Shown piece after piece: positions 24,797 through 60,511 of a DNA stretch of 64,000 bases. Position 1 is the stretch's first letter. Each line of letters starts with the position of its first letter. The stretch comes from a virus, in the IMG/VR virus record IMGVR_UViG_3300044946_000175, positions 55,162 through 119,161 of that record; one strand, given 5' to 3'. A program made the position numbers and the translations under genes. The notes under the pieces are model-generated. The model was not told where the DNA came from, did not search any database, and saw only the letters and a program-made list of their open reading frames with translations.

Positions 24797-26266
24797 ATGG
24801 CAAAATTGTTCTTAGATTTGAATTCGATAGATGGGTATAAGACATTCCTCAAGGTGAAGTCTCTGCCTCTTTATCGTTTCGTGGGTCGAGAAGCGTGGTT
24901 TCCTGACGAGTATGCCGGTGAGTTGGGATTGAGTGCCGAAAAGGCAAAAGAAAAGAAATATTCCCCTTCCAGTTCATTATTTGACTATCAGGAAGGAATT
25001 AGCCGAATCGCGATCCGTAAGCGGAAGTTCAGCGTGTTTGCTGATTGTGGATTAGGCAAAACTTTGATTGCCTTTGAATTAGTTAAACATGCTCTTTCGT
25101 GCATGGGACAGGATCGGGCAGCGCTTATTATTTCGCCTTCGATGGTCATTGACCAGACCATTTCGGAATTGATGCGGTTTTATGGCAAGGAACTGCCTAT
25201 TGAGAGGGTTCGAGCGGCTGGTCTGAAGTCGTGGATGCATTTCGGAAAATGTCGTCTGGGAATTACGAACTGGGAGGCTCTTTCTGACGAGATTACTGGT
25301 CCAGGAAGAGTTGATTGTGTAGTAGCAGACGAATCGAGTTATCTGAAATCCCAATACGGTAAGTGGGGGACCCGGTTGATTCATTTAGGTCGTGGACTGA
25401 CGTGGAAACTGTGTTTGACTGGTACACCTGCACCGAACGACCGGATCGAATATGCGAATCATGCGGTTTTTATGGATCGTTTTCCCAATGTGAATAGCTT
25501 TCTGAGTAAATACTTCATCAATCGTGGCGAGACTCAGAACCGATGGGAACTCAAACCGCACGCTCTTCACTCGTTCTATCGCTCATTGTCCCACTGGTGC
25601 ATCTTCCTGACAAATCCTTCTGTTTACGGATGGAAGGACAACACCAAACCGCTGCCGTCCATTGATGTGAAGTATTTAAACGTACCATTGACAGACGCGC
25701 AGTGGGAGAAGGCGATAGAAGTGACGAGTAACATTATGGGTATTCCAGGCGGGATTGGAGAACGAAGCAAGGTCGCGCAAATCGCAAAATCCAGCGCCGG
25801 ATATAAGCCGAAGTTCATTGCCGATCTAGCCAGAGCGTCGGACGCGGGAACCATAATCTGGTGTAAGTACAATGAGGAGCAGGACGAACTCTATCGCTTG
25901 CTGCCGGAAGCGGCCAATATCAGTGGAGACACACCTGAAAACCGTCGAATCGAACTAATTCGCGAGTTCAAGCAAGGTACGAAAAAAATTATCCTCACAA
26001 AAGACAAGATACTCGGGTATGGCCTGAACCTTCAGATGTGTCATCGGATGATCTTCTCGACGCTCATGGACTCAGCAGAGGGTTACTATCAGTGCATCAA
26101 GAGAGCCAATCGATATGGGTCGGTACATCCCCTCGAAGTGTTGATACCGGCGACCGACATCGAACTGACTATGGTCAACAATGTATTTCGTAAGTTGGAG
26201 AGGATGGAGCAGGACAACAGAGAGCAAGAGAAAATCTTCAGGCAGGAATCGATAGGGTTAATGTAG
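24797..26266 (+). CDS. phage SNF2-type DEXH helicase
   Basis: This 489-residue protein has Walker A FADCGLGKTL (81-90), DEAD-box-like VVADESSYLK, motif III LTGTPAPN, and a C-terminal lobe with CIKRANRYGSVHPLEV. The second SNF2 motor in the window, it belongs to a phage branch often placed beside a DNA methyltransferase, as here. It could remodel DNA during modification or replication. The first 60 residues (FLDLNSIDGYKTFLKVKSLP) form an N-terminal extension. Confidence 0.87.
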   Translation: MAKLFLDLNSIDGYKTFLKVKSLPLYRFVGREAWFPDEYAGELGLSAEKAKEKKYSPSSSLFDYQEGISRIAIRKRKFSVFADCGLGKTLIAFELVKHALSCMGQDRAALIISPSMVIDQTISELMRFYGKELPIERVRAAGLKSWMHFGKCRLGITNWEALSDEITGPGRVDCVVADESSYLKSQYGKWGTRLIHLGRGLTWKLCLTGTPAPNDRIEYANHAVFMDRFPNVNSFLSKYFINRGETQNRWELKPHALHSFYRSLSHWCIFLTNPSVYGWKDNTKPLPSIDVKYLNVPLTDAQWEKAIEVTSNIMGIPGGIGERSKVAQIAKSSAGYKPKFIADLARASDAGTIIWCKYNEEQDELYRLLPEAANISGDTPENRRIELIREFKQGTKKIILTKDKILGYGLNLQMCHRMIFSTLMDSAEGYYQCIKRANRYGSVHPLEVLIPATDIELTMVNNVFRKLERMEQDNREQEKIFRQESIGLM

Positions 26267-26278
26267 AAAGGAATTTTG

Positions 26279-27145
26279 ATGTTGCTTAAAGATGGAGAGA
26301 ATTGGAGAGTCGTTCACGGAGACTCGATTATTCATATGGCAGAGATGCCTATAGAATCAGTCGATTTTTCGATATTTTCTCCACCGTTCCCCGCGCTATA
26401 CTCGTATACCGATTTGACTAACGACATAGGAAATTCAGAAGACAAAACAGAAACTCGTCTCCATCTGTCTTTTTTCTATCGTCAGCTTGCGAGGATCGTC
26501 AAGCCAGGTCGGGTGATTATGGTTCACATCATGCAGATTGCTCGTATGAAGCGAACCGGCGAAGTCGGTTTATTTGACTTTCGTGGTTTGAATATCCGAT
26601 TGGGAGAGCGGGCTGGTTTGGTTTATGAGTACGACTGGATGGTCCGTCGCAATCCACAGAGTCAGGCTATCAGGACTCGCTCGCGAGAATTGCAATTTGC
26701 TGGTTTGGAATCTGATCGCGCTAAGTCTCGTGGTACGCTATGTGACTACCTCATCAAGTTTCGAGTTCCTGGGGAGAATACCGTTCCGGTGGATTCAGAG
26801 AATGACGTTTCGCGCAATGATTGGATTCAGTGGGCTGAGGGCAGTTGGGCAAACATCAAAGAAACAGATACACTCAACGTTCAAGGAAGTAAAGGAAAGA
26901 ATGACACCCGTCATGTGTGCCCGCTTCAGCTTCAGATAATTAATAGGCTGGTGCGACTCTACACCAATCCAAAAGAGATCGTCTTCTCACCATTTGCAGG
27001 GATCGGCTCTGAACTTGTGATGGCTTTGAGATTGGGACGCCGGGCTTATGGAATTGAACTGAAGGACGAATACTACCGAAAGTGCGTCGAGAACTGCGAA
27101 ATGTCAGGTAAAGAATCGCAAATAGAAGAGAATTTATTTTGGTGA
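26279..27145 (+). CDS. DNA N4-cytosine/N6-adenine methyltransferase
   Basis: This 288-residue protein places catalytic motif IV first (DFSIFSPPFPALYSY) and the SAM-binding motif I near the C-terminus (VFSPFAGIGSELVMALRLGR), a beta-class order. SPPF is compatible with exocyclic amino methylation of cytosine or adenine. No restriction enzyme is adjacent, so it probably protects phage DNA. It starts 12 bases after the helicase stop. Confidence 0.88.
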   Translation: MLLKDGENWRVVHGDSIIHMAEMPIESVDFSIFSPPFPALYSYTDLTNDIGNSEDKTETRLHLSFFYRQLARIVKPGRVIMVHIMQIARMKRTGEVGLFDFRGLNIRLGERAGLVYEYDWMVRRNPQSQAIRTRSRELQFAGLESDRAKSRGTLCDYLIKFRVPGENTVPVDSENDVSRNDWIQWAEGSWANIKETDTLNVQGSKGKNDTRHVCPLQLQIINRLVRLYTNPKEIVFSPFAGIGSELVMALRLGRRAYGIELKDEYYRKCVENCEMSGKESQIEENLFW

Positions 27146-27150
27146 GTCTG

Positions 27151-27176
27151 TGTGAAAACAGGCGATACAGTAATTA
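27151..27176 (+). promoter_or_regulatory. class 2 motif before the clamp-loader operon
   Basis: GTGAAAACAGGCGATACAGT is followed by AATTAAG; it matches the element at 24771 almost exactly. ATG at 27184 follows within 8 bp. Confidence 0.6.
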
Positions 27177-27183
27177 AGAGAAC

Positions 27184-27492
27184 ATGGCAGGAGGGGCATC
27201 TAAAGGGGTTCGTTTAGAATCGCACGGTGTCTCTTCTGTCTTGTGTTTTGAGAAAAAGCAAATGACTGACGCGGAACGTGATAGGTACATGGCAAAGATT
27301 GCTAACAGTGCTGAGAGACTGGCGGCATTGTTACGACATCAAGAGCCTGGACTTCTTTCGTGGGCTTCTGATGTCAGGCGGCATGCTGAGATTGTGGCAA
27401 ATTGGTGGAACGGAGAGAAGGCAAATCCGGAACCCGTCGATAGGTGTGGGGACTGTGGCGCGGTGATGCCCTGTGTTTGTAGACCGACGTGA
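27184..27492 (+). CDS. small protein with C-terminal zinc site, 102 aa
   Basis: A helical core (DRYMAKIANSAERLAALLRH) ends in CGDCGAVMPCVC, a compact CxxC...CxC metal site. The ATG at 27184 follows the class 2 motif; the ATG at 27262 would give a 76-residue version that starts at the conserved-looking part. Function is unknown. It precedes the clamp loader. Confidence 0.6.
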   Translation: MAGGASKGVRLESHGVSSVLCFEKKQMTDAERDRYMAKIANSAERLAALLRHQEPGLLSWASDVRRHAEIVANWWNGEKANPEPVDRCGDCGAVMPCVCRPT

Positions 27493-57624: not shown

Positions 57625-57655
57625 TACTTTCACTCAACTCTTACAGGAGATTATT

Positions 57656-58336
57656 ATGTCCCGTTATTTAATCGTTTCCCGCCACCCGGCGGCAGTAGAG
57701 TTCATCAAAACGAATGCACCGGAATTCAAAGACGCTCCCGTATTGGCGTCTGCGGTTCGTGCTGATGTCATCGGTGCTGTGGTCGCTGGCAATTTGCCAT
57801 TGCACTTAGCGGCTCTGGCCGTGCAGGTAGTGGCTGTGGAATTCACCGGCGATCCGCCCCGTGGGGCAGAGTATGGGCAGACGGAAATGATTGCCGCTGG
57901 CGCTAGACTTACACGGTATACCGTGTGTTCGGTCGCTACGGTAGCGACCGAATTGGAGTGGAATGATGGAATTGGTCATCGGGGGCGACAGAGCAAGTTG
58001 CTGATCGGGGCAGGCGATGCAATCCACGAATTTTCCGGGTCACACATATCCGGCGTAGTCGCCGTACTCAAGGCCGATTACAAAAAAAATGGCAAGTGGT
58101 CCAATACTGATTATCGTCTCAAATTGTCACAGACAGCTTGGAGCTATGTGGCCAAGCAATCGTGGGAAGAAGGCGAGTGGTTTCATGGTTGCTCATCTGT
58201 CGCAGCAGTCGTAGCTGAAATTCGCAAAGCTGGCTGTATTGCAGCAGATGCGACAGTTCGGAATTTCCTCGTTGAGAAATTTCCAAAGACGATGGAAAGG
58301 ATCGTTGCGACAGAATCTGCTCTGGCGTCTGTCTAA
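57656..58336 (+). CDS. Csx16-domain protein, 226 aa
   Basis: Residues 1-88 match the CRISPR-associated VVA1548/Csx16 pattern: YLIVSRHPAAVEFIK, VIGAVVAGNLPLHLAALAVQ, RGAEYGQTEMIAAGARLTRY, then TV. Csx16 accompanies type III CRISPR loci and has been described as a ring nuclease acting on cyclic oligoadenylate signals. No type III gene is nearby, so a phage copy could degrade the host alarm molecule. Residues 105-226 form a second, unknown domain (KLSQTAWSYVAKQSWEEGE). Two palindromes lie in the linker. Confidence 0.7.
   Translation: MSRYLIVSRHPAAVEFIKTNAPEFKDAPVLASAVRADVIGAVVAGNLPLHLAALAVQVVAVEFTGDPPRGAEYGQTEMIAAGARLTRYTVCSVATVATELEWNDGIGHRGRQSKLLIGAGDAIHEFSGSHISGVVAVLKADYKKNGKWSNTDYRLKLSQTAWSYVAKQSWEEGEWFHGCSSVAAVVAEIRKAGCIAADATVRNFLVEKFPKTMERIVATESALASV
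57911..57952. repeat. two adjacent palindromes in the Csx16-like linker
   Basis: ACACGGTATACCGTGT (57911-57926) is a 16-bp perfect palindrome. TTCGGTCGCTAC (57928-57939) and GTAGCGACCGAA (57941-57952) are 12-bp perfect arms around one base. Both are in frame. Confidence 0.85.
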
Positions 58337-59802: not shown

Positions 59803-59928
59803 ATTTCAAGGAGGATCGTCATGTTCTGGTCGATCTGTGTGAGAGTGACTCTTATTGCGCTTCCGGAGGGCGTTCTCCGGACGCGTCTTGTCCTATTCTT
59901 GTGCAGCTACTGAGAGGCAAATGACCAT

Positions 59929-59950
59929 GACCGGCGATACAATAAGTAAG
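59929..59950 (+). promoter_or_regulatory. class 2 motif before the acetyltransferase
   Basis: ACCGGCGATACAATAAGTAA matches the right two thirds of the class 2 consensus; ATG 59957 follows AAGGA. Confidence 0.45.
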
Positions 59951-59956
59951 GACCTT

Positions 59957-60511
59957 ATGGAGACACCCGTGAAAATCTCGTCATTCCTCTCCAGGAACGT
60001 TCAGATTCGTCCCGTGACGGTCGAGGACTACAAGAGTCTGGCTGCCGTCGAATACGAAGCAACTGGCGGCAAGCAGTGGGGTAGGTTCGGCTTTCAGAGA
60101 TATCTGAAGTGTGGCAACGTCGTTGGGTTTGTGGCTCATTCGGGCGGTAGTTGTGTTGGCTTTTTGCTGGCCAGTCAGCAGGAAACGTTCGTGGAAGTGG
60201 ACTACGTGGCCATACGGCCCGAGTTTCAGCGGCAGGGGATCGGTACGAGGTTGATGATCAAGGCGATGAATGCACTCTCTGCTCCACTCGCGCAGGTGAG
60301 GCACAAAGATGGCGATCCAAAGAATAACGACCTCTCGAATCTTCGATTGGTCGCGAAGAAAGTCCAATGCCGACTGACCGCGACGGTGCATGAGAAGAAC
60401 GTGGCCGCGCAGTTGTTCCTGCGGTCGGTAGGCTTCACGGTGGTGAATTACTTCAGTGAGGTTCGGGAAGACGGATGTGACGCGTATGGATTTGTTTTGA
60501 ATTTACCTTGA
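59957..60511 (+). CDS. GNAT acetyltransferase with HNH-like insert
   Basis: This 184-residue protein has the GNAT acetyl-CoA site EFQRQGIGTRLMIKAM (89-104) and the end motif HEKNVAAQLFLRSVGF (145-160). Between them residues 114-133 read VRHKDGDPKNNDLSNLRLVA, which is the HNH signature segment (H.DGD..NN...NL). I know of no GNAT with this loop, so it is a chimeric insertion or convergent. The ATG at 59957 is behind AAGGA; 59928 is an alternative. Substrate unknown. Confidence 0.72.
   Translation: METPVKISSFLSRNVQIRPVTVEDYKSLAAVEYEATGGKQWGRFGFQRYLKCGNVVGFVAHSGGSCVGFLLASQQETFVEVDYVAIRPEFQRQGIGTRLMIKAMNALSAPLAQVRHKDGDPKNNDLSNLRLVAKKVQCRLTATVHEKNVAAQLFLRSVGFTVVNYFSEVREDGCDAYGFVLNLP

What the first reader, a model, noticed from the sequence alone, without database searches (positions are those of the whole stretch)
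57656..58336. Phage-borne Csx16-like protein, possible ring nuclease against type III CRISPR
The N-terminal 88 residues carry the Csx16/VVA1548 pattern and the protein is not near any type III locus. Csx16 has been linked to cleavage of cyclic oligoadenylates. A phage would benefit from erasing that signal, as known viral ring nucleases do. It is fused to an unknown C-terminal domain, so it may be a new architecture.
Basis: partly seen in the sequence, partly recalled or inferred. Interest (0 to 1): 0.85.

Follow-up and report, generated by a model that had tools for sequence, protein, structure and literature searches.

The report
Phage Csx16-type ring nuclease with extra domain
This phage carries a gene whose front half belongs to Csx16, a family of bacterial enzymes that destroy a CRISPR alarm molecule, so the phage probably uses it to silence type III CRISPR immunity; it belongs to a little-noticed branch found almost only in uncultured viruses, and its back half resembles nothing known.

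Summary
ORF 57656-58336 (+, 226 aa) has a Csx16/Cas_VVA1548 domain at residues 6-90 (Pfam 29.5 bits, cut-off 25; two PADLOC Csx16 models agree). The 119-kb viral record has no Cas10 or RAMP gene. Csx16 is no longer only "linked" to ring cleavage: one member was shown in 2025 to be a cA4-specific ring nuclease, and the same paper counted Csx16 in two phage genomes, so viral Csx16 as such is not new. What is new here: the window protein lies in a separate branch (IVSRHPAA / GN[LIV]PL.LA / PPRGxEY; about 18 viral contigs, one 7.7-kb MAG contig, no cultured phage or plasmid record). It sits in phages that share almost no neighbouring genes, is under purifying selection (dN/dS about 0.1) and keeps the motifs of cellular Csx16. 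The 130-aa C-terminal domain is in frame, its codon usage fits, and no tool found a relative; other viral Csx16s carry unrelated tails. Best reading: a viral cA4 ring nuclease acting against type III CRISPR, with an accessory domain of unknown role. Catalysis and anti-CRISPR action are inferred, not shown.

The parts
57645..57649 (+). ribosome-binding site AGGAG, 6 nt before the ATG
   Evidence: read directly from the sequence
57656..58336 (+). 226-aa protein: Csx16 domain plus C-terminal domain
   Evidence: open frame; codon usage fits in frame 0 only
57671..57925 (+). Csx16 / Cas_VVA1548 domain, residues 6-90
   Evidence: Pfam 29.5 bits over cut-off 25; PADLOC Csx16; AF2 model from 17 sequences, mean pLDDT 93.6, alpha/beta fold
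57677..57685 (+). motif 1, S8-R9-H10, after the first strand
   Evidence: R9 and H10 invariant in 17 sequences; H10 invariant also in plasmid and archaeal-virus Csx16
57788..57805 (+). motif 2, G45-N-L-P48-L-H50, after a core strand
   Evidence: G45 and P48 invariant in both alignments
57860..57871 (+). motif 3, R69-G70-A-E72, after the next strand
   Evidence: G70 and E72 invariant; R69, G70, E72 nearly invariant
57944..58333 (+). C-terminal domain, residues 97-226, no known relative
   Evidence: no match in Pfam, PHROGs, phage or plasmid records, viral contigs or elsewhere in the record

Best explanation
The gene encodes a viral ring nuclease of the Csx16 family. During infection of a host with a cA4-signalling type III CRISPR system, the protein would (probably as a dimer, as modelled for another Csx16) bind cyclic tetra-adenylate on the face formed by the SRH, GNLPLH and RGAE motifs and cut it to linear products, so that cA4-activated effectors such as Csx1 are not switched on. 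The C-terminal domain is an accessory part, perhaps for oligomerisation, localisation or substrate access, so far seen in this phage alone. Shown: family membership, motif conservation, viral distribution, purifying selection. Inferred: cA4 cleavage, anti-CRISPR role, dimer, role of the C-terminal domain.
For: Csx16 profile over cut-off and PADLOC Csx16. Motifs shared with plasmid-borne csx16 genes, one of which lies between CARF and csm6 genes. A representative Csx16 degrades cA4 specifically (PMC12409355). No type III locus in the record, so no in-cis housekeeping role. Patchy spread: 24 other viral contigs with Csx16-like genes but one genome contig among 84,980 genomes for this branch; the loci that carry the gene share almost no other proteins with this record. 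dN/dS 0.07-0.14 in the informative pairs of six viral relatives. Recurrent capture by unlike phages fits a counter-defence gene.
Against: Score only modestly over the cut-off and no NCBIfam match. I found no published catalytic residue for Csx16, so motif retention is indirect. The viral branch has RGxEY and GN[LIV]P where cellular Csx16 has RGxEL and G[TSV]LP, which could mean another substrate. Host unknown. No PDB or viral structure match at E<=0.001.
Confidence: 0.62

Rival explanations
1. It binds a cyclic nucleotide but does not cut it efficiently (a sponge), or cuts another immune messenger such as a CBASS or Thoeris signal.
For: Sequence changes specific to the viral branch near the conserved motifs; Csx15, another candidate ring nuclease, is a good cA4 binder and a slow nuclease (PMC13148439).
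Against: All positions invariant in the Csx16 alignment are kept. PMC13148439 argues that sponging suits type III poorly because the signal is abundant.
Confidence: 0.18
2. It has a role unrelated to immunity: a nucleotide-binding Rossmann-like domain recruited for phage replication or regulation, the C-terminal domain being the working part.
For: It lies among unknown genes a few kb before the terminase gene; many viral Csx16 carry extra domains, some zinc-ribbon-like.
Against: The tails differ between phages while the Csx16 domain stays constant, the domain is under purifying selection, and neighbours are not shared, which does not fit a core replication part.
Confidence: 0.15
3. Decayed or accidental Csx16-like gene with no function.
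For: Weak profile score; one relative (L033) has two copies that have lost the RGxE motif.
Against: Intact frame, in-frame codon usage, invariant motifs, 69% identity to another phage's copy.
Confidence: 0.05

Closest known systems
Csx16 (Cas_VVA1548, PF09652), CRISPR-associated ring nuclease
   Same: same domain over its whole length and the same conserved motifs; predicted alpha/beta Rossmann-like fold
   Different: 21-35% identity to plasmid and archaeal-virus members; virus-borne; branch-specific RGxEY and GN[LIV]P; fused to an extra 130-aa domain
Csx16 of Methanobacterium viruses Drs3 and PhiF3
   Same: Csx16 in a tailed virus, no cas genes in the flanks read; probably the two viral Csx16 counted in PMC12409355 (my inference)
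   Different: single-domain, archaeal viruses, a different part of the tree
AcrIII-1 (viral Crn2)
   Same: works-like comparison: viral enzyme that removes cA4 as an anti-CRISPR
   Different: a different protein family; no sequence relation found by the family libraries used here
Crn4b of phages and plasmids
   Same: works-like: viral ring nuclease family, some members with extensions of unknown function (PMC12830947)
   Different: unrelated fold; extension is N-terminal

Membership tests
Csx16 (PF09652) | profile match over the curated cut-off | tested here: met
   29.5 bits vs 25, profile 2-90 of 91
Csx16 (PF09652) | conserved motifs [ST]RH, GxLP, RGxE | tested here: met
   H10, G45, L47, P48, G70, E72 invariant across 9 diverse members
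Csx16 (PF09652) | five-stranded Rossmann-like core | tested here: inconclusive
   alpha/beta model at pLDDT 93.6 with a fitting order of elements, but no solved Csx16 to compare and no fold match at E<=0.001
Csx16 (PF09652) | cA4-specific ring nuclease activity | not testable with these tools
   shown for one Csx16 in PMC12409355, not for this protein
Csx16 (PF09652) | association with a type III CRISPR locus (usual context, not shared by viral members) | tested here: not met
   no Cas10 or RAMP in the record; a matter of context, not of the protein, so membership of the protein family stands
type III anti-CRISPR (AcrIII) | relief of type III immunity in vivo | not testable with these tools
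   no experiment and no known host

The most novel reading that the evidence does not exclude
A virus-specific branch of Csx16, absent from cultured phages and nearly absent from cellular genomes, is a widespread type III anti-CRISPR ring nuclease that repeatedly gains different accessory domains; in this phage the orphan C-terminal domain gives it a second activity or a new target, such as docking on the Csm/Cmr complex or an effector.
Probability: 0.15. Interest if true: 0.8.

Novelty: new variant of a known kind. Interest (0 to 1): 0.5.

Why it matters
Viral Csx16 was counted in only two of 28,114 phage genomes. The branch found here, in about 18 viral contigs from mostly unlike phages, suggests that viruses use Csx16 against cA4 signalling more often than cultured collections show, and gives a ready panel of proteins, with and without fused domains, for testing ring cleavage and anti-CRISPR action.

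Tried and rejected
Relatives of the C-terminal domain were sought in Pfam, PHROGs, phage and plasmid records, four viral-contig scans and the own record; none found. Weak hits such as T4 beta-glucosyltransferase at E 0.19 and phrog_37105 at 0.036 are treated as chance. A PADLOC 'Csx1' hit at E 4.6e-35 in the record first looked like a second type III gene; it is a TnpB. DARPin hits in the PDB come from a shared PLHLAA string. The single-sequence fold of the whole protein failed (pLDDT 41.8). Rfam and tRNA scans were empty. A phylum-wide Csx16 search around the one MAG genome found only that contig.

Full report
The object. ORF 57656-58336 on the + strand encodes 226 residues, with AGGAG six bases before its ATG. 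The window is bases 55162-119161 of a 119,161-base virus record. The record has 50% GC and no end repeats were found. It carries a terminase large subunit, DNA polymerase, clamp loader, helicases, a UvsX-like recombinase and several HNH endonucleases, so a tailed phage is the natural reading.

The domain. Residues 6-90 match the whole Cas_VVA1548 (Csx16) profile at 29.5 bits, above the curated 25, and two PADLOC Csx16 models. NCBIfam and PHROGs were silent. Aligned with Csx16 from plasmids and from two archaeal viruses, the window protein keeps every invariant position: H10, G45, L47, P48, G70, E72. An AlphaFold2 model of residues 1-96, with 16 relatives in the alignment, has mean pLDDT 93.6. 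In it the SRH, GNLPLH and RGAE motifs all follow strands, which in a Rossmann-like sheet would put them on one face; this is my inference from the order of elements. Fold searches found no significant match. I know of no solved Csx16 structure to match.

What Csx16 does. PMC12409355 reports that a purified Csx16 degrades cA4 but not cA3 or cA6, and models a conserved face as the cA4 site. It counts Csx16 in two of 28,114 phage genomes. Viral Csx16 is therefore known in outline.

The viral branch. Pattern scans of viral contigs gave 24 contigs with Csx16-like genes besides this record. About 18 viral members, this one included, share IVSRHPAA, GN[LIV]PL.LA and mostly PRGxEY. On a 27-row tree the 13 such rows included form one group with moderate support (87/89; the tool does not star it). 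Searches with the window protein or with L017 found no cultured phage and, on plasmids, one weak archaeal match outside the branch. The scan of 84,980 genomes gave one match, on a 7.7-kb contig of an Armatimonadota MAG, whose origin I did not settle; none of the other 148 genomes searched in that phylum has PF09652. These are pattern-limited scans, so the counts are lower bounds.

Signs of function. Of the 16 loci compared that carry Csx16 relatives, almost none shares another protein with this record; the exceptions are two terminase matches and one small protein. Six close relatives give dN/dS 0.07-0.14 in all informative pairs. One gene kept intact in phages that share little else is what a portable counter-defence gene should look like. 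No Cas10 or RAMP gene is in this record, so it is not a displaced CRISPR accessory of this element.

The C-terminal domain. Residues 97-226 are in frame and their codon usage fits, so the fusion is not a chance extension of the frame. No relative was found by any method, and none of the viral relatives carries it. Other members have zinc-ribbon-like tails or heads (L015, L017, L022), long unrelated tails (L021, L028, L033, L035) or insertions of roughly 20-35 residues after the first helix (L019, L022, L032). A variable accessory part on a constant Csx16 core is the pattern; I cannot say what this one does.

Verdict. Family membership is firm, the ring-nuclease mechanism is likely, and the anti-CRISPR role is plausible but rests on inference.

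Noticed in passing
L033 7385-7762 and 7986-8507: Two diverged tandem Csx16-like genes in one viral contig, both without an intact RGxE motif; possibly cA4 sponges or decayed copies.
   Followed up: partly
L015 5989-6390, L022 5815-6243, L017 665-1264: Viral Csx16 joined to zinc-ribbon-like CxxC modules, at the C-terminus in L015 and L022 and just before the domain in L017.
   Followed up: partly
L012 489-1250 (Allomeiothermus silvanus plasmid pMESIL02): A 261-aa plasmid protein with two Csx16 domains in tandem, beside a conjugation gene; perhaps a plasmid ring nuclease built as an internal dimer.
   Followed up: partly
window 59855-60511: GNAT acetyltransferase ORF with an HNH_3 match at residues 147-169, inside the stretch that an acetyltransferase profile spans.
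   Followed up: no
window 744, 5287, 56023, 56908, 59152: Recurring AAGGCAA...TTGCCTT palindromes, mostly in gaps between genes; 6 pattern hits in the record against 0.8 expected in mononucleotide shuffles. Terminators or regulatory sites.
   Followed up: partly
record 26208-27299, - strand (L003 6208-7299): TnpB-type gene in the phage. PADLOC model PDLC01039, named Csx1, matches this place at E 6.9e-36 and also hits half of the control genomes, so that model name misleads.
   Followed up: yes
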